This document shows, piece after piece, positions 34,489 to 59,846 of a stretch of DNA of 64,000 nucleotides. Every line of letters begins with the position of its first letter. Position 1 is the first letter of the stretch. A program made the translations under genes and the position numbers. Below the pieces are notes generated by a model. That model was not told the origin of the DNA. It ran no database searches and worked only from the letters and a program-made list of their open reading frames with translations. This DNA comes from Neisseria sicca (GTDB taxonomy: Bacteria > Pseudomonadota > Gammaproteobacteria > Burkholderiales > Neisseriaceae): contig NZ_POXG01000003.1 of assembly GCF_003044565.1 (NCBI RefSeq), positions 310,001 to 374,000 on the forward strand. The letters run 5' to 3'.

Positions 34489-34632
34489 AAAAAAAAGGGG
34501 TGGCAACAGCCACACCCAAACACACACACATCAAGAGGAAAGAGATAGAGAGTATTAAATCAAAGCAGATGTATCATCTACTACTGATCAGAAAATCTTG
34601 AAGACTTTGAGAAATGTCGTCTCAGTTCCAAT
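34489..34632 (-). ncRNA. Putative FNR-activated small RNA (AniS/FnrS-like)
   Basis: On the minus strand, a perfect FNR box, a TATAAT -10 box and a strong Rho-independent terminator frame about 144 nt with no credible ORF. The terminator is GGGTGTGGC/GCCACCCC-type followed by eight T. The RNA carries a CU-rich stretch (CTCTTTCCTCTTGATG) that could pair with ribosome binding sites. Neisseria has a known FNR-dependent, Hfq-bound sRNA of this kind, AniS/FnrS. Homology by name is from memory; the promoter and terminator are seen directly. The 5' end is predicted, not mapped. Confidence 0.7.
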
Positions 34633-46266: not shown

Positions 46267-47397
46267 TTATAGTTGTCGTAAGAATGCTTGAATAAATGCA
46301 ATCTTATCCAGTTCCGGCATGGCGTTGAACGCCTCGCGATGCTCGTGGATGTGGTCGATTAAGGGATAAAACTCTTCATCGACGTGGCGTTTGTCGAGCT
46401 TGCGTCCGATGTTGCCTTCGTTGCTTCGTCCCAGAAACTTGGAAATCAGGTAATACGGCGATTTGAGTTTGAACAGCATTTCGCCGGTTTGGGCATCAAA
46501 CACCATAAAACCTTCGTGTTCCACGTTTTTCAGACGACCTTTCAGCTCCCCGAACGTGATGTTTTTCAGCGTTTCGGGGCGGCGGATGCCGTATTGTTTG
46601 CCGATTTCGTCCAATTCGGCTTCGCCAAACTGACGGCCTGTCGCCACGTCGATGCAGCCGATTAGGGTTTCACCCAATTCTTCGCGGATGATGTGGATAT
46701 CTTTCGCGTCTGTGATTTCAAACAAAAAAGTATGGTTCGGATAAGCGCGGAACAGGGTTTCGTATTGCGCGCAGTGTGCGGCGGTCATGTCTGCAAACGC
46801 GCTATCAAGCGAACCGGTGGTCGAATACAGCACTTTGCCGTCAAACGCCGCGCCGTGGGACGGATGGTCGTCTGAAAGCGAGACGAAAGTGCAGCAGCCG
46901 AGGAAGCCGTTCACTTTTACCACTGCATCCACCAATCGCTCGTCGCCGACGCGGATTGGATAACGGCTGCCTTTGGCAATACGCTCCGAGTAATTGAACA
47001 CTTTTTTAAACGGGCGCACTATGATGCGGTTGTGCGCGTCGATAATCAAACCGCGCATTTCCAGCAGCGCATCGTCGAAGCGGTTGTCGTAGAACACGCT
47101 GCGGGCGTATTTCAACACGCGCAATTCGGGATAACGCTTGGACGCTTTGGCGGTAAAGTTGCGGCTGCCGTGTTGCAGATAATTTTCGGTTACGAAGGTT
47201 TGCTGTGCTTCGTCAAACGACAAGGATTGCTGCTCGAAAGCCTGCATTTGTTTGATTTTTTCCAGCTGTTCCGCGCTGGCGGGCTGCATGGCTTCGACGT
47301 GGATTTCGTTTGCCACGCGGTTTTGGTTCAGCTTGATATACGCCGCCAACACGTCATACTCTTTCACGCCGTGCAGGTTGGGATAGAAATTGTGCAT
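46267..47397 (-). CDS. T4 Rnl1-type RNA ligase
   Basis: This ORF encodes an ATP-dependent RNA ligase of the Rnl1 class. It has ALLEMRGLIID and IIVRPFKKVFNYSE upstream of the nucleotidyl-Lys motif I (VVKVNGFLG, Lys161), motif III-like TFLFEITDAKD, motif IV EGFMVFD (residues 295-301) and motif V LFKLKSPYY. It would seal 5'-phosphate to 3'-OH RNA ends, for example after anticodon cleavage. The first roughly 35 residues look like the end of the upstream kinase, not ligase; the real start is probably within or before the frame change at 47423-47430. It is the last repair gene of the leftward operon. Confidence 0.88.
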   Translation of the reverse strand: MHNFYPNLHGVKEYDVLAAYIKLNQNRVANEIHVEAMQPASAEQLEKIKQMQAFEQQSLSFDEAQQTFVTENYLQHGSRNFTAKASKRYPELRVLKYARSVFYDNRFDDALLEMRGLIIDAHNRIIVRPFKKVFNYSERIAKGSRYPIRVGDERLVDAVVKVNGFLGCCTFVSLSDDHPSHGAAFDGKVLYSTTGSLDSAFADMTAAHCAQYETLFRAYPNHTFLFEITDAKDIHIIREELGETLIGCIDVATGRQFGEAELDEIGKQYGIRRPETLKNITFGELKGRLKNVEHEGFMVFDAQTGEMLFKLKSPYYLISKFLGRSNEGNIGRKLDKRHVDEEFYPLIDHIHEHREAFNAMPELDKIAFIQAFLRQL

Positions 47398-47413
47398 ACG
47401 ATAGATTTCTGTT

Positions 47414-47746
47414 TCAAAACCGCTTTTTTTTCGCCAAATCCAACAAGTGGCGGCAACGCGAAGCTTTTTGGTTGGTGTTGGAATGGATGATTAAAATGTT
47501 GCGGTTCGGATTTTGGCGACCGATTTTTAAGGTTTCGGTCATCAAGGCATTGCCGCGCTTTTGCGCCTTATCCACCGCCTCGCCCGACCAGCGGTACACG
47601 CCGTTTTCATCGGTCATGAACAAGTCGTTTTCAATACGGACGATTTCGGCATCACGGTACTTCGCTTTAAATTCGGCGGCTTTTTGTTCGGCGAAAGTCG
47701 ATTTTCCCGAACCTTGGTGTCCGCGGATTAAGATGAATTTTTGCAT
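47414..47746 (-). CDS. P-loop polynucleotide kinase-like protein, C-terminus shifted out of frame
   Basis: The 110-residue ORF has Walker A (IRGHQGSGKSTFAEQ), a VRIENDLFM segment with an acidic residue, and LIIHSNTNQKASRCRHLLDL, as in small RNA/DNA 5'-kinases. It then runs into AAAAAAAA and stops (KKKRF). Removing one A gives LAKKSGFETEIYRMHNFYPN, the expected kinase ending, and continues in frame into the ligase. So kinase and ligase were probably one fusion of about 492 residues, or the tract switches between forms. A 3'-phosphatase domain is not present. Confidence 0.8.
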   Translation of the reverse strand: MQKFILIRGHQGSGKSTFAEQKAAEFKAKYRDAEIVRIENDLFMTDENGVYRWSGEAVDKAQKRGNALMTETLKIGRQNPNRNILIIHSNTNQKASRCRHLLDLAKKKRF

Positions 47747-50076: not shown

Positions 50077-50164
50077 GGTGGCAACGCAGCGGCTAATATT
50101 TGAAGAGATACGGTTTTTTAACGTGGAAGGTTAATGTAATCCCTTCAGGCATCCGCCTGTCGCC
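50077..50164 (-). ncRNA. Y-RNA-like element F
   Basis: On the minus strand the 5' end GGCGACAGGCGG pairs with CCGCTGCGTTGCC. The conserved ATGCC faces AATATTAG as an internal loop, and TGAAGGGAT pairs with ATCTCTTCA over 9 bp. The terminal loop contains a TTAAC/GTTAA hairpin and no tRNA-like arm. It ends 85 bases before the rsr start. Confidence 0.7.
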
Positions 50165-50166
50165 GT

Positions 50167-50264
50167 AAAAGGGGGAGGGAGCGGCTAGGCTGTGGCAGGA
50201 TTCCTGCTTCGTATTATTAGTACGACGATTGTTTATCCAATGTAATCCTGCCGGCATCCGCCCG
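50167..50264 (-). ncRNA. Y-RNA-like element E
   Basis: 98 nt. CGGGCGG-ATGCC-GGCAGGATT pairs with AATCCTGCC-ACAGCCTAG-CCGCTCCC, followed by T residues. Its 5' strand is identical to that of element C. The apical part (about 40 nt) lacks a T arm. It overlaps the last codons of the gene ending at 50233, and element F begins two bases later. Confidence 0.75.
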
Positions 50265-50646
50265 TAAAACTTGTAAATATTGGTTTTAACTTCATTGAAG
50301 CTGTACTTTCAGACGACCTTTCGCTTTCAATCATGCAGCGGATACATGCCTGCCGCACATAGGCTTTGCGGTCGTCTGAAAGACGCAGTACAAGCATGCT
50401 TCCATAGCCGAACAGAAAATCTGTTTCTTTGCCCTGCGCCGTGCCGAGTATTTCGGCTTGGCGGAAGGTGCGGCCGTCTGAAAGTGCGATGTCGTAACGG
50501 CAGCCTTCCTTTATCAAACTGCATTCCGCTTCGGGAAAAGTCTGTTCCCGCCAAGCCTGCTCGCGTTTGCGGCTGCGGCTGTTTTGGAACGACCCGCAAA
50601 CCAGAGTTGAAAAAACGATGACGCCGATGATTAACCAAGTGTTCAT
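50233..50646 (-). CDS. Hypothetical membrane-anchored protein
   Basis: I do not recognise this 137-residue protein. It has an N-terminal helix (WLIIGVIVFSTLVCG), a basic stretch (SRSRKREQAW) and a domain with YDIALSDGRTFRQAEILGTA. The last dozen codons (TGGCRQDYIG) are simply the translated start of Y-RNA element E, so the ancestral stop was probably elsewhere or the element arrived later. Confidence 0.6.
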   Translation of the reverse strand: MNTWLIIGVIVFSTLVCGSFQNSRSRKREQAWREQTFPEAECSLIKEGCRYDIALSDGRTFRQAEILGTAQGKETDFLFGYGSMLVLRLSDDRKAYVRQACIRCMIESERSSESTASMKLKPIFTSFTGGCRQDYIG

Positions 50647-50672
50647 ATCTATTCCTTAAAGGCGGCTCAGTT

Positions 50673-51125
50673 TCAGGTAGCCTTTTTTGGAAAAGGATGT
50701 TCTACCCATCTTTCCAAATATTCTTTTTCGCCGATATTCAGATAAATATCTTCTAAAATCAGACGGATGTTTTCCGCCAATTCATACCGGGCCACTTTGC
50801 CGTGCCATAAGGTTTGTTGTGGACTGCGATTGAAGTTGAAACTGAAAAACCAGTCGTCTGAATAAATCAGCCTCACTTCGGCTTCGTTGCTTTGTTCGGC
50901 TGCAGATACCAGTAAGGTCAGTTCGCCGGGTTCGTCTAAAAACAGGACTTTCGCCTCAGTAATGCTGCCGCCGCTTTGCAGAGCAATTGCTAAATCACAT
51001 AAATCTTTCAGCGAATCATGCAGATAGGAAACAGCCTGTTGATAGTTCTCTTCGCCATATTTCACGGTAACGTTTGCCCAGCCTGCATCGTGCAGCTGAT
51101 AGGCGATATGGAATGATTCGGTCAT
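50673..51125 (-). CDS. Hypothetical cytosolic protein
   Basis: I do not recognise this 150-residue acidic protein. It reads MTESFHIAYQLHDAGWANVT at the start and has VLFLDEPGELTLLVSAAEQ and ELAENIRLILEDIYLNIGEK. Upstream in-frame codons to 51182 run into Y-RNA element D, so the ATG at 51125 is chosen. Its place between two Y-RNA groups may be fortuitous. Confidence 0.62.
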   Translation of the reverse strand: MTESFHIAYQLHDAGWANVTVKYGEENYQQAVSYLHDSLKDLCDLAIALQSGGSITEAKVLFLDEPGELTLLVSAAEQSNEAEVRLIYSDDWFFSFNFNRSPQQTLWHGKVARYELAENIRLILEDIYLNIGEKEYLERWVEHPFPKKAT

Positions 51126-51163
51126 GGCTATGCCTCCTTCAGGTCGTCTGAAAGTATCGATAA

Positions 51164-51295
51164 GGTGCAGTACGGCAAACAACGAGTTTTTGGAAACGCC
51201 TTATTGCTCTAACCGACTGAGCTACCCGCCGAAAGCGGGGCAGGACTCGAACCTGCGACGGATGTAGTTTCCAAGGCATTTGTCTGCCATACTGC
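51164..51295 (-). ncRNA. Y-RNA-like element D with permuted tRNA-like module
   Basis: About 132 nt. GCAGTATGGCAGACAA pairs over 16 bp with TTGTTTGCCGTACTGC, then ATGCC/AAACTCG loop, then GGAAAC/GTTTCC. Inside, in order: T arm GCAGGTTCGAGTCCTGC, acceptor-like hairpin CCCGC-TTTCG-GCGGG, then a D arm TAGCTCAGTCGGTTAGAGCA. This is a tRNA with the acceptor end closed and the anticodon arm replaced by the Y stem, i.e. a circular permutation. Element C ends one base before it. Confidence 0.85.
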
Positions 51296-51296
51296 G

Positions 51297-51394
51297 AAAA
51301 AGGTGGGCGGCTAGATTGGCAGGATTTACGCCGTTTCCGGCGGCGGGAATCGAACCCGCAATAACCGATCTGTAATCCTGCCGGCATCCGCCCG
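51297..51394 (-). ncRNA. Y-RNA-like element C
   Basis: 98 nt. CGGGCGG-ATGCC-GGCAGGATT pairs with AATCCTGCC-AATCTAG-CCGCCC and is followed by ACC and five T. The apical part has a T-arm-like hairpin GCGGGTTCGATTCCCGC and a short GCCG-GAAA-CGGC hairpin in place of the acceptor; no D arm is seen. Same length and stem as element E. Confidence 0.85.
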
Positions 51395-51401
51395 TAAGGG
51401 G

Positions 51402-51443
51402 TGGTACATCTGGCAACAAGAATGGTACATCTGGCAACAAGAA
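51402..51443. repeat. Two-copy 21-bp tandem repeat
   Basis: TGGTACATCTGGCAACAAGAA occurs twice head to tail (51402-51422, 51423-51443). The unit is the 3' strand of the outer stem of Y-RNA element B, so two alternative pairing partners exist for its 5' strand. Confidence 0.9.
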
Positions 51444-51570
51444 GTAGAGAAATTTTTACGCGCTCTATCCTCTGAGCTACTCTGCCATAGTTGGCGGCAG
51501 AGGCGGGATTCGAACCCGCGACCTCGAGCGTTGGCAGGCTGTAATTCCTCCGGCATTTGCCGAATGCACC
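51424..51570 (-). ncRNA. Y-RNA-like element B with permuted tRNA-like module
   Basis: About 147 nt. GGTGCAT and GGCAA pair with TTGCC and ATGTACC, ATGCC follows, and GAGGAATTAC pairs with GTAAAAATTTCTC. The centre holds T arm GCGGGTTCGAATCCCGC, then CTCTGCC plus GCCA, a 5-nt linker, then GGCAGAG, TAGCTCAGAGGATAGAGC. The acceptor strands are complementary but in reversed order, with a GCCA like a tRNA 3' end, so this is a nearly complete circularly permuted tRNA body. The 3' end may instead be at 51403. Confidence 0.85.
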
Positions 51571-51588
51571 TAAAACGGTTTTCATCGT

Positions 51589-51616
51589 AGGTCGTCTGAA
51601 AAGTTTCAGACGACCT
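51589..51616. terminator. Compact inverted DUS pair within the Y-RNA array
   Basis: AGGTCGTCTGAA and TTCAGACGACCT are four bases apart, between elements G and B. It may act as a processing or attenuation hairpin. Confidence 0.6.
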
Positions 51617-51633
51617 TGAGTGATCAAGCGATA

Positions 51634-51682
51634 CAGCAAGCCATCAACCATTCAGGGGAACAAGGCTGGCATTTGCCTGCTG
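51634..51682 (-). ncRNA. Possible minimal Y-RNA-like element G
   Basis: 49 nt. CAGCAGGC pairs with GCTTGCTG over 8 bp, with AAATGCC and GATG opposite each other and a weak AGCC/GGTT inner stem. It resembles the other elements in plan but is short and has an alternative fold, so it is the least certain. Confidence 0.4.
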
Positions 51683-51688
51683 AATCAG

Positions 51689-51786
51689 AAAAGGTGGGCG
51701 ACTAGAGAAACAAGACGTCAACGCCTATTAGGCGAGTCAGGAATCGAACCTGCAGAACCACTGTAGTCTTGTCGGCATTCGCCCTG
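51689..51786 (-). ncRNA. Y-RNA-like element A
   Basis: 98 nt, like C and E. GGGCGA-ATGCC-GACAAGAC pairs with GTCTTGTT-TCTCTAG-TCGCCC, then ACC and four T. The apical part has a T-arm-like hairpin (CAGGTTCGATTCCTG) and a CGCC-TAATA-GGCG hairpin where the acceptor would be. Element H ends one base upstream. Confidence 0.82.
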
Positions 51787-51787
51787 T

Positions 51788-51864
51788 AACGACACAACAG
51801 CTAAAAATTCACGGAAAATTCTTTCCTATAGAACTGTATTTCCCGCAGCATCTGCTGCATCGTT
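51788..51864 (-). ncRNA. Y-RNA-like element H, first of the array
   Basis: 77 nt. AACGATGCAGCAG pairs with CTGTTGTGTCGTT over 13 bp (three wobbles). ATGCTGC and GTGAATTTTTAG form the internal loop, and GGGAAA pairs with TTTTCC. There is no tRNA-like arm. Its 5' end falls within about 3 bases of the start predicted from the sigma-54 promoter. Confidence 0.72.
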
Positions 51865-51878
51865 ACATTTACAACACA

Positions 51879-51893
51879 GCCAACAGCGTGCCA
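51879..51893 (-). promoter_or_regulatory. Sigma-54 promoter of the Y-RNA/rsr/ligase operon
   Basis: The minus strand reads TTGGCACGCTGTTGGCT. The -24 block TGGCACG is exact and GG and GC are 10 bases apart as required; the -12 block is TGGC rather than TTGC. The predicted start is about 51867, at the 5' end of element H. The RtcR gene, a sigma-54 activator, is in the same island. RtcR-binding sites should lie in the 51.90-52.04 kb gap, which is AT-rich and otherwise has no recognised feature. Confidence 0.78.
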
Positions 51894-52041: not shown

Positions 52042-52797
52042 ATGCGATTCGACGATTTGGACAAACGCCTGCGGCAATACGAAACAGCTTATGATTTCTG
52101 CGTGCCGCAGGAAAATTTCATTGTAGTGCGCTTGGACGGACGCGGCTTTACGCGGTTGACCAAGGAAATTTGGCAGTTTGAAGCACCCTTTGACATCCGT
52201 TTTCGCGATTTGATGGCGCACACCGTCCGTCATTTGATGAAATGCGGTTTCAATGTGGCGTACGGCTATTCCGAAAGCGATGAGATTTCGTTGCTGCTGC
52301 GCCGCGACGACGATACTTTCAAACGCAAAACGCGCAAAATCATTTCGGTATTGGCGGGCGAAGCCAGCGCCGCCTTTTCGGTGGCACACGGGCAGCCCGC
52401 CGCTTTTGATGCCAGAGTTTGCGTTTTGCCGAATGAGAAACTGGTGGTCGATTACTTCCGCTGGCGGCATGAAGATGCGCACCGCAACGCACTCAATGCC
52501 CATTGTTATTGGATGCTGCGCAAGAAAGGCGAAAGTGTATCCCGAGCCACAGAAGCGGTCAGCGGTCTCACGCGCGCGCAGAAACATGATTTGCTGTTTG
52601 AACACAATATCAATTTCAACGAATTGCCCTCATGGCAGAAACGCGGCTTCGGCGTGTATTTTCAGACGACCTTGAAAGAGGGTTTCAATCCGCAAACCGG
52701 CGAAACCGTGCAGGTGGAACGCCAAATTTTACATACGGATTTCGAGCTGCCTTTGGGCGACGATTACGGCGCGTTTGTCTTGGAAAGAATCGTTTAG
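52042..52797 (+). CDS. Thg1-like protein (tRNA 3'-5' polymerase/guanylyltransferase family)
   Basis: The 251-residue protein belongs to the Thg1/TLP family, which adds nucleotides to RNA 5' ends in the 3'-5' direction and can rebuild truncated tRNA 5' ends. Metal-binding residues are in FIVVRLDGRGFTRL (Asp32) and YGYSESDEISLLLRR (Asp80, Glu81). The family continues with AGEASAAFS, FDARVCVLPNEKLVVDYFRW and RATEAVSGLTRAQKHDLLF. AAGGAG precedes the ATG. It diverges from the Y-RNA operon and leads the helicase and rtcR genes. Confidence 0.9.
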   Translation: MRFDDLDKRLRQYETAYDFCVPQENFIVVRLDGRGFTRLTKEIWQFEAPFDIRFRDLMAHTVRHLMKCGFNVAYGYSESDEISLLLRRDDDTFKRKTRKIISVLAGEASAAFSVAHGQPAAFDARVCVLPNEKLVVDYFRWRHEDAHRNALNAHCYWMLRKKGESVSRATEAVSGLTRAQKHDLLFEHNINFNELPSWQKRGFGVYFQTTLKEGFNPQTGETVQVERQILHTDFELPLGDDYGAFVLERIV

Positions 52798-52810
52798 AGG
52801 TCGTCTGAAA

Positions 52811-55800
52811 ATGAATACTCCTACAAAAGTACACATCCCTGCTGTTCTCATCATTGATTTGGAAGTCGATCCAAAAACCGACAAGCCGTTCAAAATCGGT
52901 GCATTCCGCCCCGACTTTGGTTTATTTTTTGAAAAAGCTTTTCGTGGAGAAAAGGGTTTTCATGCTGCCTTGGTTGAAATGGCGAATATGACTGATGGAT
53001 TGAAGTGGCTGATGGGGCATAACTTTCTCGAGCACGATTTGAAATATTTGAAGGCTGCAATGCCTGAAGCTGCATGGCTTAAATTGCCTGTTATCGATAC
53101 GCTGCGGCTCTCGCCTTTGGCGTTTCCACAAAATCCGTATCATCGCTTGATCAAAAACCATAAAATCATCTCTTCTGAAATTAATTCCCCGCTTGCCGAT
53201 TGCCACGCATGCTGGCAACTTTTCCAAGACCAATGCACGGCGTTCGGCAAAATCAAGGTAGAAAGTCCTGAAGAATTTGAGTTGTGGGCGACCTTGTCCG
53301 ACATGCCTCTGCCATACCAGATTTCAGATTGCATTACCATTCCCGAACGCGTCATATGCCCTGATGTCAAGCGGCTGATCAGCACCATTTGGCTGATGAT
53401 GCAGGACAACGATGACCAAGGTCGTCTGAAAGTTTGCCGCACTCGTTTTACGGAGTTGATGAAAACTGATATCCATAATCCTGATATATATCCCTCCCTC
53501 GGCTACGCTTTGTCGTGGTTAAAAGTTTCTGGTGGGAATTCTGTACTGGCGCCGTGGGTGCGGCATCAATTTCCCGAGACGGCTCGGCTGATTGCCGAAT
53601 TGCGTGATCATGATTGTGGCAGTACAGAATGTCGTTATTGTCAGGATACGCTCAATCCGGATGTACAGTTGCAGCGTTATTTCAAACTGCCTACTTTCCG
53701 CGATGTAAAAGGATTTGATGGTGGACAACGTGCGGTGGTGCAATCAGGTATGAAGGGATTGCACACGCTGGCAGTATTGCCTACGGGAGGCGGCAAATCC
53801 TTGTGTTATCAGTTGCCAGCACTCAACCGCTACTACCGCAACGGAGGCTTGACAATAGTTGTTTCACCGTTGCAATCGCTGATGAAAGATCAATTGGACG
53901 GTTTGGAGAAAAAAGGTGATACCTGCGCTGCTATGCTTAACGGCTTGGTTGAGGTGGTTGAACGTGCCCAAATTTTAGACAAAACCGCCTTGGGCGATAT
54001 TGGCATCTTGTTTGTCGCGCCTGAGCAATTCCGCAACAGAAGTTTCATTACTGCTATTTCACAGCGCCAAATCAATGGCTGGGTATTTGACGAGGCACAT
54101 TGTCTGTCAAAATGGGGGCACGATTTCCGTCCTGATTATCTATATGCAGTCAAATTTATTGCTGAATACAGCAAAAATAGTGGTGCGGTTGCGCCGGTCA
54201 GTTGTTTCACTGCTACCGCCAAACCCGACGTCCTTGCTGATATTACCCACCATTTTCGAGAGGAAATGGGTATTGAGTTTCGCCAATTTATCGGTGACAA
54301 CGCACGCGACAATCTGTTTTACGATGTGCAGGAAATTTCAGACGACCTCAAAAAGCAAAAAATCAACGATCTGCTACATCGTGAACTTGATCATCAAAGC
54401 GGTGGGGCCGTGGTATTTGTCGGACGGCGGAAAAGTGCGGAAACCTATTCGAATTATCTGAAAGAACAAGGCTGGGCATGTGAGCATTTCCACGCCGATT
54501 TAGGTAACAACGAAAAAGCCGATATTCAAAACCAATTTATTGGCGGTAGTTTGCGCGTTATTGTTGCCACCAACGCCTTTGGTATGGGGGTGGATAAATC
54601 CGATGTGCGCCTAGTGATTCATGCCGAGATTACCGGTTCGCTGGAGAATTATTTACAGGAAGCGGGTAGGGCAGGAAGGGATCAGGAAGATGCAAAATGC
54701 GTGTTGCTTTATGACGGAAAAGACGTGGATACGCAGTTTTCCATCAGCAAAATGTCGCAAATCGAATTACGCGATTTGAAATCAGTATGGAAGAAAGTCG
54801 GTTGGCTGAATCAGGCGGCATACGGCAAAGACCATTGCGGTGAAATCGTGGCAACAGGTGGCGAAATTTTGCGCGCCACCGAGGAGCATATGAGTTTTGA
54901 CAGCGATGATAGACAGGCAGATACCAAAGTCAAAACCGTGCTGGCATGGCTGGAACGCGCAGACTTATTGGAGCGCAAGGAAAATCAAACCCGTATTTTC
55001 CCCGCACGTTCAGGTCGTCTGAATCTAGATGAGGCGCTGGCGATTATTGAAAAAAACAAGTTCAGCAAGCGTATCTCGGAAATTTACCAAACTATTGTCG
55101 AAATCGTGTTTCAAGCGCCAGATGACGCGCCTTTGAGTACCGACGATTTGATGCAGGCAACAGCATGCAGTTTCACTGAATTGCGCGGTCATCTAAAAAA
55201 ACTGGAAGAATTGGACATTCTTACCAACGATACACACATGACCGTTATTTTGCGTACTGATAACAAAAAGCCTGCTGATAAACGTCTGGCGCAAGTTATC
55301 GCTTGGGAAGAGAAACTTTGGCAGATTTTAAAAAACGAAATTCCGGAAGCTGATCAAGGGATTTGGCAAAATCTCTCGTTGAATGCTGTTTGCTACCAAA
55401 TGAATGAGGCGGGTTTGGAAACCAATCCTGCTGAAATCAAACTTTTGATGCAGTCGCTCGCCGATGATAAGGCGGCACAGCGGACAAATAGCAGTGGAAG
55501 TTTCCAAATCCGTGATGTTGGCAACAACCTTTTGAAAGTGCGTTTCAAGAATTCTAAGAGCGACAGTTGGGAAAGCGTGCAAAACAACGCAGAGCTGCGC
55601 CGTAATATCAACCTCTGCCTCTTACCATTCTTGATGGCAAAAACCAACGGAGTGCGCCAAAAAGACGTAATGGTGGAAACCCGCATGGGTGAATTGGTAC
55701 AACAGATTGCCGACGATTTGGTATTGTCGGTGCAAATCCCCGCCGACCGTCGTGAGCTTCTGCTCAAGCAGGCTTTGCTGTTCATGCACAAACAAGGTGT

Positions 55801-58138
55801 GATCAAACTCAACCACGGTATGACTATTCTACGTCATGCCATGACTATTATCCCTAATCCTGAAGCGCTCTCAGCCAAACGCCAATATCTTGTGGAGGAC
55901 TATAAATCACTTTCTGTTTTTTACAGCGAAAAACGTTTTCAAATCCATGTGATGCAGGAATACGCCCTTCGTGCATTGAAAAACCTTGCCGAAGGATTGA
56001 ATTTGGTGCGAGATTACTTTGGCTTGGAAGAAAAGAATTTTAAAAATAAATGGTTTAAAGGTCGTCTGAAAGAATTGGACGAGCCTGCATCGCCACAAAC
56101 CCTGCGCGAAATTACAGATGGGCTGAATGAGATGCAGAAAACCGTTGTTACTGACCAAAGCGGTAGTAACCGTCTTATTCTTGCCGGACCGGGTTCAGGC
56201 AAAACGCGAGTTATTGTGCACCGTGTTGCTTACCTCTTACGGGTGCAACATGTTCCCGCATCCGCCATCATTGTTTTGACTTTCAACCGTTTGGCGGCGC
56301 AGGAGGTCAAGCGCCGACTGTTCGGACTGGTCGGCCCTCTTGCTGCTGCCGTTACGGTCATGACTTATGACGGTATGGCAATGCGGCTTTTGGGGGTTCG
56401 TTTTGACGGCAACAATCGAGAATACGGCAAAAGTCAGTTTAAAGAATGGTGCAGGCAGGCTGCCGCTATGCTTTCAGACGACCTTGAAAACGATGATGGT
56501 AGCGATGAGACACGCGAACGTATCATGGCAGGTTTCCGCTATATTCTGGTAGATGAATACCAAGACATCAGTGAAGAACACTACCGGCTTGTTTCTGCGC
56601 TTGCGGGTAGGAAGCGGGCTGAAGAAGACAAACTGACCATTCTGGCGGTCGGCGACGATGACCAAAACATCTACGCCTTCAATGGCACGAGCAACGAGTA
56701 TATACACCGCTTCCAAAAAGACTACGACGTTGCCCAACCTGACTATTTAACCTACAACTACCGCAGTACACAATACATCATCAGCGCTGCTAACAGCGTA
56801 ATAAACGGCATGACAGGTCGTCTGAAAACACTGCATCCGATTGTTATCAACCCTGAACGTCAAACACAGCCCAACGGTGGCGTATGGGCTTCAACAGACA
56901 GCGAAAGGCAGGGGCGTGTGCGCCACATCAGCCTGCCGTTCGGTAGCAGCAGCAACATACAGGCACAAGCGGTTATTGCCGAAATAGGTCGTCTGAAAAC
57001 CTTGAGTGCAGTCGAATGGAATGAGATTGCAGTTTTATCCCGTCATAATGCCACTCTCAAACCTCTACAGGCATGGTGTGAACAAAACGGTATACCTTAT
57101 TTTTTGAGTGCCGACAAAAGCAGCAAAATCAAATTGCGCCACACCCGTGAGTTTGTCCGTCTTATTGATGGCGTGGAAAAACAAACCGAAGGCTTTACAT
57201 CACAAGCTTTTGCAGAACTTATTAGTGAACAAGTGAAAAAAAGTGGTGGTAGTTGGTGCGTTTGGTTTAGGCAATTACAAACTGATTTCTTAAACGAATA
57301 TCCACTGCAAGATGAGAAGCTACCTGAAAAGTCGGATAACCTTGCAGAGAGTCGTGAGGCAGAAATCCAAGCGTCGCCCAAAGAAGACAACGGGTCGTCT
57401 GAAAACGATAGTGGCAACGTTAACCGATATTCGTCCGCCTTTCTTAAAAACTGGCTCTACGAATATGTAGGTGATGAACATGAAACCCGTTCGGAAGGTA
57501 TATTTCTAGGCACGGCGCACGCAGTCAAAGGGTTGGAGTTTAAGCACGTCTTCATTTTAGACGGCGGTTGGCAGGGAGTTGATGAAGCCGAACAGAGGCT
57601 TTATTACGTCGCTATAACTCGTGCCATAGAAACACTGACCCTACTGCAAACTACCCCAGAGCATCCTTGGATGGCAAAGCTACCTGATGATATTGACAGC
57701 GTGGCTCAAATCTTTACCGAATTACCTGAGTTGAATACCGAATACAGGCGTTTGGCAGCTTATCGAAACACGGCAGTCGAGGGGGAAACCGATAGCAAAA
57801 GTGATTTGGATATCGACTTCATTGTCTGTCACAACAATGTCGAAACTGTGAAACAACGTCTGTTTGCTGCTGCGAAGCTGAAAAAAGACGATCCACTGGC
57901 AATGAAGCGGACGGAGGATGGCAGATATATTTTCCTTTCTGATGATATTGAAGTTGCCCGTACCGTCAAATTACCACCGTTGCCGACAAAAACTACCGCT
58001 TATGCCAACACCTTCAGAGTACGTTATTTAGACGAAGTCGGAGAATCATTTCGCCAACGTATCCCAGAAAAAATCGGTACTAAAAAGCTGGAAAAATGGA
58101 CGCTTGTTATCCCTATGTTAATGATACCACCTGAGTAA
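52811..58138 (+). CDS. Exonuclease-RecQ-UvrD fusion helicase
   Basis: The 1775-residue protein joins three modules. Residues 1-170 look like a DEDD 3'-5' exonuclease (VLIIDLEVD, LMGHNFLEHDLKYL). Residues 290-700 are a RecQ-type SF2 helicase (LPTGGGKSLCYQLP near 325, VFDEAHCLSKWG near 427, QEAGRAGRDQEDAKC). Residues 1110-1650 are a UvrD/Rep-type SF1 helicase (LAGPGSGKTRVIVHR near 1125, LVDEYQDISEEHYRL near 1248, GDDDQNIYAFNG, LTYNYRST, HAVKGLEFKHV, YYVAITRA). Its ATG lies one base after a DUS that also supplies the AGAGG ribosome binding site. At least seven exact DUS copies lie inside the gene. Confidence 0.9.
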   Translation: MNTPTKVHIPAVLIIDLEVDPKTDKPFKIGAFRPDFGLFFEKAFRGEKGFHAALVEMANMTDGLKWLMGHNFLEHDLKYLKAAMPEAAWLKLPVIDTLRLSPLAFPQNPYHRLIKNHKIISSEINSPLADCHACWQLFQDQCTAFGKIKVESPEEFELWATLSDMPLPYQISDCITIPERVICPDVKRLISTIWLMMQDNDDQGRLKVCRTRFTELMKTDIHNPDIYPSLGYALSWLKVSGGNSVLAPWVRHQFPETARLIAELRDHDCGSTECRYCQDTLNPDVQLQRYFKLPTFRDVKGFDGGQRAVVQSGMKGLHTLAVLPTGGGKSLCYQLPALNRYYRNGGLTIVVSPLQSLMKDQLDGLEKKGDTCAAMLNGLVEVVERAQILDKTALGDIGILFVAPEQFRNRSFITAISQRQINGWVFDEAHCLSKWGHDFRPDYLYAVKFIAEYSKNSGAVAPVSCFTATAKPDVLADITHHFREEMGIEFRQFIGDNARDNLFYDVQEISDDLKKQKINDLLHRELDHQSGGAVVFVGRRKSAETYSNYLKEQGWACEHFHADLGNNEKADIQNQFIGGSLRVIVATNAFGMGVDKSDVRLVIHAEITGSLENYLQEAGRAGRDQEDAKCVLLYDGKDVDTQFSISKMSQIELRDLKSVWKKVGWLNQAAYGKDHCGEIVATGGEILRATEEHMSFDSDDRQADTKVKTVLAWLERADLLERKENQTRIFPARSGRLNLDEALAIIEKNKFSKRISEIYQTIVEIVFQAPDDAPLSTDDLMQATACSFTELRGHLKKLEELDILTNDTHMTVILRTDNKKPADKRLAQVIAWEEKLWQILKNEIPEADQGIWQNLSLNAVCYQMNEAGLETNPAEIKLLMQSLADDKAAQRTNSSGSFQIRDVGNNLLKVRFKNSKSDSWESVQNNAELRRNINLCLLPFLMAKTNGVRQKDVMVETRMGELVQQIADDLVLSVQIPADRRELLLKQALLFMHKQGVIKLNHGMTILRHAMTIIPNPEALSAKRQYLVEDYKSLSVFYSEKRFQIHVMQEYALRALKNLAEGLNLVRDYFGLEEKNFKNKWFKGRLKELDEPASPQTLREITDGLNEMQKTVVTDQSGSNRLILAGPGSGKTRVIVHRVAYLLRVQHVPASAIIVLTFNRLAAQEVKRRLFGLVGPLAAAVTVMTYDGMAMRLLGVRFDGNNREYGKSQFKEWCRQAAAMLSDDLENDDGSDETRERIMAGFRYILVDEYQDISEEHYRLVSALAGRKRAEEDKLTILAVGDDDQNIYAFNGTSNEYIHRFQKDYDVAQPDYLTYNYRSTQYIISAANSVINGMTGRLKTLHPIVINPERQTQPNGGVWASTDSERQGRVRHISLPFGSSSNIQAQAVIAEIGRLKTLSAVEWNEIAVLSRHNATLKPLQAWCEQNGIPYFLSADKSSKIKLRHTREFVRLIDGVEKQTEGFTSQAFAELISEQVKKSGGSWCVWFRQLQTDFLNEYPLQDEKLPEKSDNLAESREAEIQASPKEDNGSSENDSGNVNRYSSAFLKNWLYEYVGDEHETRSEGIFLGTAHAVKGLEFKHVFILDGGWQGVDEAEQRLYYVAITRAIETLTLLQTTPEHPWMAKLPDDIDSVAQIFTELPELNTEYRRLAAYRNTAVEGETDSKSDLDIDFIVCHNNVETVKQRLFAAAKLKKDDPLAMKRTEDGRYIFLSDDIEVARTVKLPPLPTKTTAYANTFRVRYLDEVGESFRQRIPEKIGTKKLEKWTLVIPMLMIPPE

Positions 58139-58217: not shown

Positions 58218-59846
58218 ATGGGTAGCAAAAAACAAGTCGCCGTCAGCTTTCTCGGTACGGTATTGGACAGCGGTTTCGGTCAAGGGCGTTGGCAGAAGTG
58301 GCGGCCGAACGTCGCCATGAATCAGCGTCAGGATTTCCATCTTGACCGCATGGAGCTGTTTTATTCGGAGAAATACCGCGATCTGGCGGATCATGTCAAA
58401 GCCGATATTCAAGATGTGTCGCCGCACACCGCCGTCAATCTCGTGCCGATGGAGCTGGAAAACCCGTGGGATTTTTCCGAGGTTTATACCAAGCTGCATG
58501 ACTGGGCGGCGGGCTATGCGTTTGATACGGAAGAGGAAACCTATCTCACCCACATCACTACGGGTACGCACGTTGCGCAAATCTGCCTGTTTTTATTGGT
58601 AGAATCGCGTCAAATCCCCGGCGTGCTGTTGCAGACTGCGCCGCCGAAAAATCAAAAACGCAGCATGGGAAAAGGCGATGTCGGCAGTTATGAAATCATC
58701 GATTTGGACTTGGCGCGTTACGACGTGCTTGCCGAGCGTCTTGCTGCTGTGCGCGATGATGCAGTGCGCTACCTGAAAAGCGGCATTTCTACTCAAAACG
58801 CTGCCTTCAACCGTATGATTGCCGAAATCGAACAAGTCGCGCTGCATTCCCCGTCGCCGATTCTGCTCTCCGGTCCTACCGGCGCGGGCAAATCGATGTT
58901 GGCACGCAGGATTTTCGAATTGAAAAAAGCGCGCCATCTGATTAAAGGTGAGTTTGTCGATGTGAACTGCGCCACCTTGCGCGGCGACGGTGCGGCTTCC
59001 GCCTTGTTCGGTCACAAAAAAGGTGCGTTTACCGGCGCGGCGGAAAAGCGCGAAGGCTATCTGAAAACCGCCGACGGCGGCGTACTGTTTTTGGACGAAA
59101 TCGGCGAATTGGGCTTGGACGAACAGGCCATGTTGCTCAAAGCCATTGAAGAAAAACATTTTTATCCCGTCGGCAGCGACAAGGAAGTGCAAAGCAGCTT
59201 CCAGCTTATCGCCGGTACCAACCGCGACCTGCGGCGGGAAATCCGCGCCGGACGCTTCCGCGAAGACTTGTTTGCCCGCATCAATATTTGGAACTATCCG
59301 CTACCCGCACTCGCCGACCGCCGCGAAGACATCGAGCCGAACATCGAACACCAGCTCGCGCTCGCTTCGCAGGAACTCGGTCGCGCCACCCGTTTCAATA
59401 AAGAAGCCCTGTCCGCCTACCTTGCCTTCGCCCATTCAAGCGAAGCCCGATGGCGCGGCAATTTCCGCGACCTTGCTGCCAGCATCATGCGCCTTGCCAC
59501 GCTTGCCCCGCAGGGCAGGATACAGACGGAACAAGTGGCGGCGGAAATTGAGCGGCTCAAATGGTTGTGGGCTGAGGAGGCGGATTCAGACGACCTTGTA
59601 TCTAAGAGGTCGTCTGAAAAGGCGGATAACTACCCCGACAAAATCGATTGGGAAAATTTGGATTTGTTTGACCGATTACAACTGCAAAGCGTGATTGACG
59701 AATGCCGCAAACACCAAAACATGGCGCAGGCGGGAAGGGCTTTGTTTCATGTTTCCCGAAACAGCCGCGCCAAAACCAATGACAGCGACAGGCTGCGCAA
59801 GTATTTGCAGAAATTCGGTTTGGAGTGGAGCGATATCGTGCAGTAG
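58218..59846 (+). CDS. rtcR: RtcR, CARF-domain sigma-54-dependent activator
   Basis: RtcR activates RNA-repair genes when its CARF-like N-terminal domain senses RNA fragments. The 542-residue protein has that domain (residues 1-185), then an AAA+ domain with Walker A GPTGAGKS (219-226), the sigma-54 contact GAFTGA (269-274) and Walker B GGVLFLDEIGEL. A C-terminal DNA-binding region (MAQAGRALFHVSRNSRAKTN) follows. An inverted DUS pair (59585-59618) is translated in the linker before that region. The likely target is the promoter at 51879. No rtcB or rtcA gene is present. Confidence 0.95.
   Translation: MGSKKQVAVSFLGTVLDSGFGQGRWQKWRPNVAMNQRQDFHLDRMELFYSEKYRDLADHVKADIQDVSPHTAVNLVPMELENPWDFSEVYTKLHDWAAGYAFDTEEETYLTHITTGTHVAQICLFLLVESRQIPGVLLQTAPPKNQKRSMGKGDVGSYEIIDLDLARYDVLAERLAAVRDDAVRYLKSGISTQNAAFNRMIAEIEQVALHSPSPILLSGPTGAGKSMLARRIFELKKARHLIKGEFVDVNCATLRGDGAASALFGHKKGAFTGAAEKREGYLKTADGGVLFLDEIGELGLDEQAMLLKAIEEKHFYPVGSDKEVQSSFQLIAGTNRDLRREIRAGRFREDLFARINIWNYPLPALADRREDIEPNIEHQLALASQELGRATRFNKEALSAYLAFAHSSEARWRGNFRDLAASIMRLATLAPQGRIQTEQVAAEIERLKWLWAEEADSDDLVSKRSSEKADNYPDKIDWENLDLFDRLQLQSVIDECRKHQNMAQAGRALFHVSRNSRAKTNDSDRLRKYLQKFGLEWSDIVQ

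What the first reader, a model, noticed from the sequence alone, without database searches (positions are those of the whole stretch)
50077..51864. Array of about eight Y-RNA-like elements in one operon
Elements H, A, G, B, C, D, E and F on the minus strand share a plan: outer stem, 5' AUGCC opposite a 3' CUAG/UUAG-type strand, inner stem, variable apical module. Outer stems differ in sequence but keep pairing, which is compensatory evidence of structure. A, C and E are each 98 nt. Several abut with 1-2 base gaps, suggesting processing from one precursor. To my knowledge bacterial genomes usually have one or two Y RNAs beside rsr, so a set this large with different caps would be new.
Basis: seen in the sequence. 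Interest (0 to 1): 0.95.

Follow-up and report, generated by a model that had tools for sequence, protein, structure and literature searches.

The report
Cluster of seven-plus Y RNA genes
A Neisseria genome carries seven, perhaps eight, different small RNA elements of the Y RNA type in a cluster just before the gene of their likely protein partner Rsr, behind a promoter predicted to be switched on by damaged tRNA, so that one stress signal would deliver a whole set of interchangeable RNA adaptors; smaller and larger sets of the same predicted elements are found in other bacteria and in phages.

Summary
Partly confirmed. Seven minus-strand elements (H, A, B, C, D, E, F; 51867-50081) share one handle: outer stem, AUGC, 8-10 bp inner stem, UACA, and U-N-G before the outer 3' strand. 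G is doubtful. A strict descriptor gives 7 hits in 64 kb, all here; 500 dinucleotide shuffles of the region give 1 in total. Handle pairs covary in orthologues (25 doubly compensated cells; 0-3 when slid). D passes Rfam YrlA; B, C and A match below its threshold. Caps are modular: permuted tRNA mimic (B, D), T-arm hairpin (A, C), no tRNA part (E, F, H). A handle model hits 10 of 46 Neisseria genomes, exactly the 10 with Rsr, always beside rsr. A sigma-54-type site lies 26 bases before H; all ten genomes have RtcR. Likely role: a tRNA-damage-induced set of Rsr adaptors. "One or two per genome" does not hold in this Rsr branch: 13 other bacterial loci have 3-6 elements, viral contigs up to 10. 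New variant of a known kind. Transcription, processing and Rsr binding are untested.

The parts
51878..51893 (-). sigma-54-type -24/-12 site, 11 of 12 consensus positions; predicted +1 at 51867, the first base of H
   Evidence: three sites of 11 or more on both strands of the window; same offset of 26 bases in 7 of 10 Neisseria loci
51785..51867 (-). Y RNA element H, no tRNA-like part in the cap
   Evidence: R1 33.9 bits
51696..51784 (-). Y RNA element A, T-arm-like hairpin plus second hairpin
   Evidence: R1 44.1 bits; YrlA 35.8 bits, below gathering 69
51621..51687 (-). element G, doubtful
   Evidence: folds but no descriptor or R1 hit; two near-identical orthologues only
51424..51570 (-). 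Y RNA element B, permuted tRNA-like cap with GCCA in the acceptor hairpin loop
   Evidence: YrlA 62.6 bits, below gathering 69
51305..51393 (-). Y RNA element C, T-arm hairpin plus second hairpin
   Evidence: R1 46 bits; YrlA 40 bits, below gathering
51167..51295 (-). Y RNA element D, permuted tRNA-like cap
   Evidence: YrlA 91.7 bits, above gathering 69
50673..51125 (-). ORF of 150 aa between D and E, no family match
50233..50646 (-). ORF of 137 aa between D and E, no family match; its 3' end overlaps E by 31 nt
   Evidence: trimmed form; weak coding signal
50178..50263 (-). Y RNA element E, no tRNA-like part in the cap
   Evidence: R1 45.4 bits
50081..50163 (-). Y RNA element F, no tRNA-like part in the cap
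   Evidence: R1 42 bits
48424..49992 (-). rsr, Ro60-like protein (TROVE and Ro60 vWA domains)
   Evidence: Pfam over cut-off; PDB 2nvo by profile, E 1.2e-34; NCBIfam Rsr model matched at 85 bits, far below its cut-off of 900
46267..47746 (-). polynucleotide kinase-like ORF (47414-47746) and T4 Rnl1-like RNA ligase ORF (46267-47397)
   Evidence: Pfam AAA_33 and RNA_lig_T4_1
52042..52797 (+). Thg1-like tRNA nucleotidyltransferase, divergent
   Evidence: Pfam Thg1 and Thg1C
58218..59846 (+). rtcR, sigma-54 activator
   Evidence: Pfam RtcR; NCBIfam NF038308 805 bits, cut-off 650

Best explanation
This is a cluster of seven (perhaps eight) Y RNA elements with one shared handle and different caps, placed between a sigma-54-type promoter site and the rsr gene, which is predicted to be transcribed when RtcR senses cleaved tRNA and would supply the Rsr protein with a set of alternative RNA adaptors. 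Shown here: the elements, the shared handle and its covariation, the cap classes, the promoter match, rtcR in the same genome, and co-occurrence with rsr. Inferred from Salmonella and Deinococcus work: RtcR, bound to 5' tRNA fragments that end in cyclic phosphate, activates the operon; each handle binds an Rsr ring; the cap decides what the ring meets. tRNA-like caps would recruit PNPase or tRNA enzymes, and short caps would gate the Rsr cavity in another way or leave it open. The kinase-ligase and Thg1-like genes nearby fit tRNA repair. Cutting of the transcript into single RNAs is assumed, not shown.
For: Seven handles in 1.8 kb against 1 in 500 shuffles. Handle covariation in orthologues. 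YrlA match over threshold for D and below it for B, C and A. Handle model in 10 of 46 Neisseria genomes, the same ten as Rsr, all 30 hits in the rsr locus, none in the 36 genomes without Rsr; in the window's genome five hits in the array, the next one at E 0.18. Promoter site at the same offset of 26 bases before H in 7 of 10 loci, with a conserved block upstream in the nine loci aligned. RtcR in the ten Rsr genomes and in one of the other 36, RpoN DNA-binding domain in 42 of 46. Caps vary while the handle stays. In Salmonella RtcR drives rsr-yrlBA-rtcBA (PMC7790460, passages and introduction), and the basal stem of Y RNA holds Rsr while the tRNA-like part holds PNPase (PMC8394870, passages).
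Against: No RNA data. No terminator or cleavage signal that marks the units; the region has one sigma-70-like site, fewer than shuffles give. Only two caps are whole tRNA mimics. The 903 nt and two ORFs between D and E loosen the idea of one RNA-only transcript. RtcR lies on another contig (G031) or far away (G045) in two of the ten genomes. The site scores only 9 of 12 in L043. H, A, C and E show no doubly compensated handle pair.
Confidence: 0.68

Rival explanations
1. Decoy array: the tRNA-like caps occupy tRNA-cutting nucleases or tRNA enzymes during damage, and Rsr only keeps the RNAs stable.
For: B and D copy T-arm, acceptor and D-arm without an anticodon arm; the authors of PMC7790460 name competitive inhibition of the anticodon nuclease as a possibility (passage).
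Against: E, F and H have no tRNA part but keep the full handle; the caps are not best matched to one host tRNA.
Confidence: 0.15
2. Duplication drift: one or two elements work (B, D) and the others are surplus copies kept by chance.
For: Counts range from 2 to 8 among ten Neisseria loci; C and E share identical 5' handle sequence.
Against: H, A and F persist in the L039-L042 group at 76-85% identity to the window copies, and handle pairing is kept through changes, in F at one doubly compensated pair.
Confidence: 0.11
3. Structured leader: the elements act in cis as a 5' leader that controls rsr rather than as separate RNAs.
For: The array lies between the promoter site and rsr on one strand.
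Against: In 11 of 13 other bacterial loci the strict elements lie only downstream of rsr (in L034 the upstream side is not held), in L022 only upstream, in L023 on both sides; Salmonella has rsr before yrlB and yrlA (PMC9879122, passage).
Confidence: 0.06

Closest known systems
YrlA, Rfam RF02553 (bacterial Y RNA with tRNA-like module)
   Same: Handle and, in B and D, the permuted tRNA-like cap; D is over the gathering score
   Different: E, F, H and G are not matched at E up to 1; A and C match only in part, with a T-arm and no D-arm
Salmonella rsr-yrlBA-rtcBA RNA repair operon
   Same: RtcR, sigma-54-type promoter, Rsr, more than one Y RNA
   Different: Elements precede rsr; seven rather than two; T4-type kinase and ligase in place of RtcB and RtcA; Thg1-like gene divergent
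RYPER (Rsr, Y RNA, PNPase) of Deinococcus radiodurans
   Same: Rsr profile matches the Deinococcus Rsr structure 2nvo; Y RNA as tether and gate is the model used here (PMC4726728, passages)
   Different: PNPase contact not tested; several cap types

Membership tests
Bacterial Y RNA (YrlA type) | Rfam RF02553 gathering score | tested here: inconclusive
   D 91.7 bits, met; B 62.6, C 40, A 35.8, not met (gathering 69); E, F, H, G no match at E up to 1
Bacterial Y RNA (YrlA type) | Ro-binding handle: outer stem, AUGC bulge, inner stem | tested here: met
   Seven elements; G not met
Bacterial Y RNA (YrlA type) | Encoded beside a Ro60/Rsr gene | tested here: met
   same ten genomes for handle hits and Rsr among 46
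Bacterial Y RNA (YrlA type) | tRNA-like module in at least one Y RNA of the locus (criterion recalled from Chen 2014, not held) | tested here: met
   B and D
Bacterial Y RNA (YrlA type) | Stable RNA bound by Rsr | not testable with these tools
   Needs RNA and protein
Rsr / Ro60 | TROVE plus Ro60 vWA domains and match to solved Ro proteins | tested here: met
   Pfam TROVE 33.4 bits (cut-off 23) and vWA_Ro60 63.8 (27.7); 2nvo E 1.2e-34, 1yvp E 6.9e-16
Rsr / Ro60 | NCBIfam NF041674 Rsr equivalog cut-off | tested here: not met
   85 bits against 900; a divergent branch of the family, so it is called Rsr-like in that narrow sense
RtcR-controlled RNA repair operon | RtcR and a sigma-54-type promoter before the operon | tested here: met
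   regulation itself untested
RtcR-controlled RNA repair operon | RtcB ligase and RtcA cyclase in the operon | tested here: not met
   T4 Rnl1-type ligase and a kinase-like ORF follow rsr; RtcB is present in relatives L023 and L032

The most novel reading that the evidence does not exclude
Y RNA arrays are a general modular system: one constant Rsr handle carries a changing repertoire of caps (whole tRNA mimic, T-arm hairpin, non-tRNA) that the tRNA-damage signal delivers as a set, so that one protein ring is aimed at several RNA classes at once; bacteria and large phages each build their own repertoire, and phages set the units inside tRNA arrays.
Probability: 0.35. Interest if true: 0.78.

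Novelty: new variant of a known kind. Interest (0 to 1): 0.55.

Why it matters
The role of Y RNA caps in bacteria is open. A natural set of seven handles with three kinds of cap in one genome would let the caps be compared on the same Rsr. It would tie a repertoire of Y RNAs to the RtcR tRNA-damage signal, and the handle descriptor and model R1 find Y RNA-like elements that Rfam's YrlA model misses.

Tried and rejected
G as a full member: not accepted (no UACA, no U-N-G, no descriptor or R1 hit; two near-identical orthologues, so no power for covariation).

Caps as copies of one host tRNA: compared with 42 distinct tRNA sequences (ARAGORN on 54 Rfam tRNA places of the genome); none stands out (B: Phe 44.5 and Thr 44.0 of 57; D: Asp 42.9 of 53). 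B's cap searched against the genome gives itself at E 1.3e-36 and four weak matches at E 0.2 or more.

Expression from a distant relative: authors of a Listeria phage study suspect that highly transcribed regions near an Rsr-like gene are Y RNAs (PMC12282133, passages). In the related phage P100 two stretches were fetched; the tRNA-rich one gave no descriptor hit, also without the UACA rule; the other was not scanned. So no support from there.

Loci with no R1 or YrlA hit: L086-L089 (TROVE loci far from this branch) and L091, L092 (rtcR regions of G036 and G045 away from any rsr) (a few loose descriptor hits without the full motif set). L024 gave no descriptor or R1 hit; its contig ends just after rsr. 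24 of 46 viral Rsr loci have no strict element. TROVE was found in only 5 of 398 drawn genomes of the phylum at E 1e-5 (the window's own genome fell below that limit), so a broad count per Rsr was not possible.

Priority: the key papers on bacterial Y RNAs are not held (Chen 2013, Chen 2014, Sim and Wolin 2018, Sim 2020, Wang 2018, Burroughs and Aravind 2016). Searches for earlier reports of such arrays. I saw none in the listings or in the passages read, but the library lacks the papers most likely to hold one.

Full report
What is there. The window lies in a Neisseria genome (G000, contig 3; the genus is taken from the named matches). On the minus strand, between a divergent Thg1-like gene (52042-52797 +) and rsr (49992-48424), lie elements H, A, (G), B, C, D, two ORFs, then E and F. 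Seven of the eight follow one plan: outer stem of 5 to 16 bp, AUGC bulge, inner stem of 8-10 bp, UACA, a cap, the inner 3' strand, 7-9 bases that end in U-N-G, and the outer 3' strand. In 41 aligned handles from Neisseria, Cardiobacterium, Acidobacteria, Verrucomicrobia and a Phycisphaerales MAG, these are invariant: AUGC, an A two places before UACA, UACA, and the U and G of U-N-G.

Is it more than chance. The loose descriptor gives 11 hits on both strands of 64 kb, 7 of them in this 1.8 kb. The strict form, which adds the UACA motif and a limit on the 3' loop, gives just those 7. It was tuned on the elements, so shuffles are the control: totals of 1 strict and 2 loose hits in 500 dinucleotide shuffles of the region, against 7 and 7. 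In the whole genome, model R1 finds five array members and then nothing better than E 0.18. It misses B and D, whose caps are long and which Rfam YrlA catches. R1 was built from seven window elements and 34 others, so hits on those are by construction; L036, L037, L038 and L040-L042 were not in the seed and are hit. Rfam YrlA at low scores is not specific: it also scores tandem tRNA genes at about 35 bits in Neisseria genomes without Rsr, so A's 35.8 bits alone would prove nothing.

Covariation. On the 41 handles 94% of cells pair, with 174 double-change cells against a mean of 58 in shuffles and 8-38 when slid. These rows were chosen by a pairing rule, so one search is the cleaner test: orthologues aligned by sequence, handle pairs taken from the window. 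There 25 cells at 13 pairs are doubly compensated against 0-3 cells in six slid versions, and 64% of varied cells stay paired against 34-50%. Against this, 52 of the 145 varied cells are unpaired, H, A, C and E show no doubly compensated handle pair, and a structure taken from the window leans towards the unslid version. With whole folded structures the count is 44 doubly compensated against 81 broken cells (sum over the eight elements).

Caps. B and D carry a permuted tRNA (T-arm, acceptor hairpin, D-arm); A and C a T-arm hairpin with a second hairpin; E, F and H no tRNA part (the script calls A 'none' because one of five T-stem pairs is broken in the window copy, while the L036 and L039-L042 copies pass). 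In the window copy of B and its 9 other Neisseria copies the acceptor hairpin loop begins GCCA, as if a tRNA 3' end were joined to a 5' end; the Cardiobacterium copy does not. Together with the YrlA scores of tandem tRNA genes this fits, as inference, an origin of the cap from a tRNA-tRNA junction. No single host tRNA matches the caps best.

Control. A sigma-54-type site (11 of 12 positions) lies 26 bases before H in 7 of 10 Neisseria loci; L037 and L044 have 12 of 12 near their first element, L043 has 9 of 12. Three sites of 11 or more exist on both strands of the 64 kb. The block upstream is conserved in the nine loci aligned, although the divergent gene is thg1 in some and rtcR in others. 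RtcR is at 58218-59846, in the ten Rsr genomes and in one of the other 36 (G036); the genomes are related, so these are not ten independent events, and in G031 and G045 rtcR is not near rsr. [quoted passage not shown]

Relatives. Strict counts per locus: window 7, L036 8, L037 4, L038 7, L039 6, L040 6, L041 6, L042 5, L043 6, L044 2; 13 other bacterial loci 3-6; viral contigs 0-10, with 22 of 46 having at least one (L100/L101 and L104/L105 look like duplicates, and two hits in L115 overlap). Three named records (L020, L021, L030) were left out as copies of G013, G031 and G026. The strict rule misses some: orthologues of F and D found by BLAST are not all counted. In L023 and in viral L107, L112, L122 and L123 the elements lie in stretches rich in tRNA genes, in L123 nearly flush with them. 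So the array is the high end of a wider pattern in this Rsr branch, not a lone case.

Mechanism. Most likely the array is a damage-induced set of adaptors for Rsr. A constant handle with varied caps argues that the protein contact is fixed and the far end differs in task. That step, the cutting into units, and the Rsr and PNPase contacts are inference from Deinococcus and Salmonella work (PMC4726728 and PMC8394870, passages).

Novelty. Two Y RNAs per operon are in print for Salmonella (PMC9879122, passage). I recall, from an abstract not held here, that Chen 2014 found likely Y RNAs near Ro60 in more than 250 species and a tRNA-like module in at least one per species; that paper may list larger sets. 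T-arm-only and tRNA-free caps beside whole mimics, in an RtcR-type operon with a T4-type ligase, make this a new variant of a known kind.

Noticed in passing
window 46267-47746 (-): Kinase-like and ligase-like parts lie in two ORFs here (110 and 376 aa), while L040 and L022 have one ORF of 492-494 aa with both domains (L037 and L042 also have one long ORF). Either a broken gene, a split one, or a sequencing error.
   Followed up: partly
L112, L123, L107, L094, L122 (viral contigs) and L023 (Acidobacteria MAG): Five to ten strict Y RNA elements among tRNA genes: L123 has 7 beside 35 ARAGORN tRNA calls, L112 10 beside 20; L023 6 beside about a dozen.
   Followed up: partly
L122:8236-8375 and L137:8086-8209: Caps with the tRNA parts in normal, not permuted, order; in L122 ARAGORN calls a tRNA inside the predicted element. 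Could be chance stems around a real tRNA.
   Followed up: no
window 52775-58138 (+): Single ORF of 1787 aa with RecQ-like DEAD helicase and UvrD helicase domains between the Thg1-like gene and rtcR.
   Followed up: no
G036 (unnamed Neisseria genome): RtcR without Rsr and without handle-model hits.
   Followed up: partly
window about 51586-51618 (-): Inverted repeat AGGTCGTCTGAA/TTCAGACGACCT between G and B; the label neisserial DNA uptake sequence is recalled, not from a call. It could also act as a hairpin in the transcript.
   Followed up: no
window 34489-34591 (-): Rfam AniS small RNA, 70.4 bits against a gathering score of 50.
   Followed up: no
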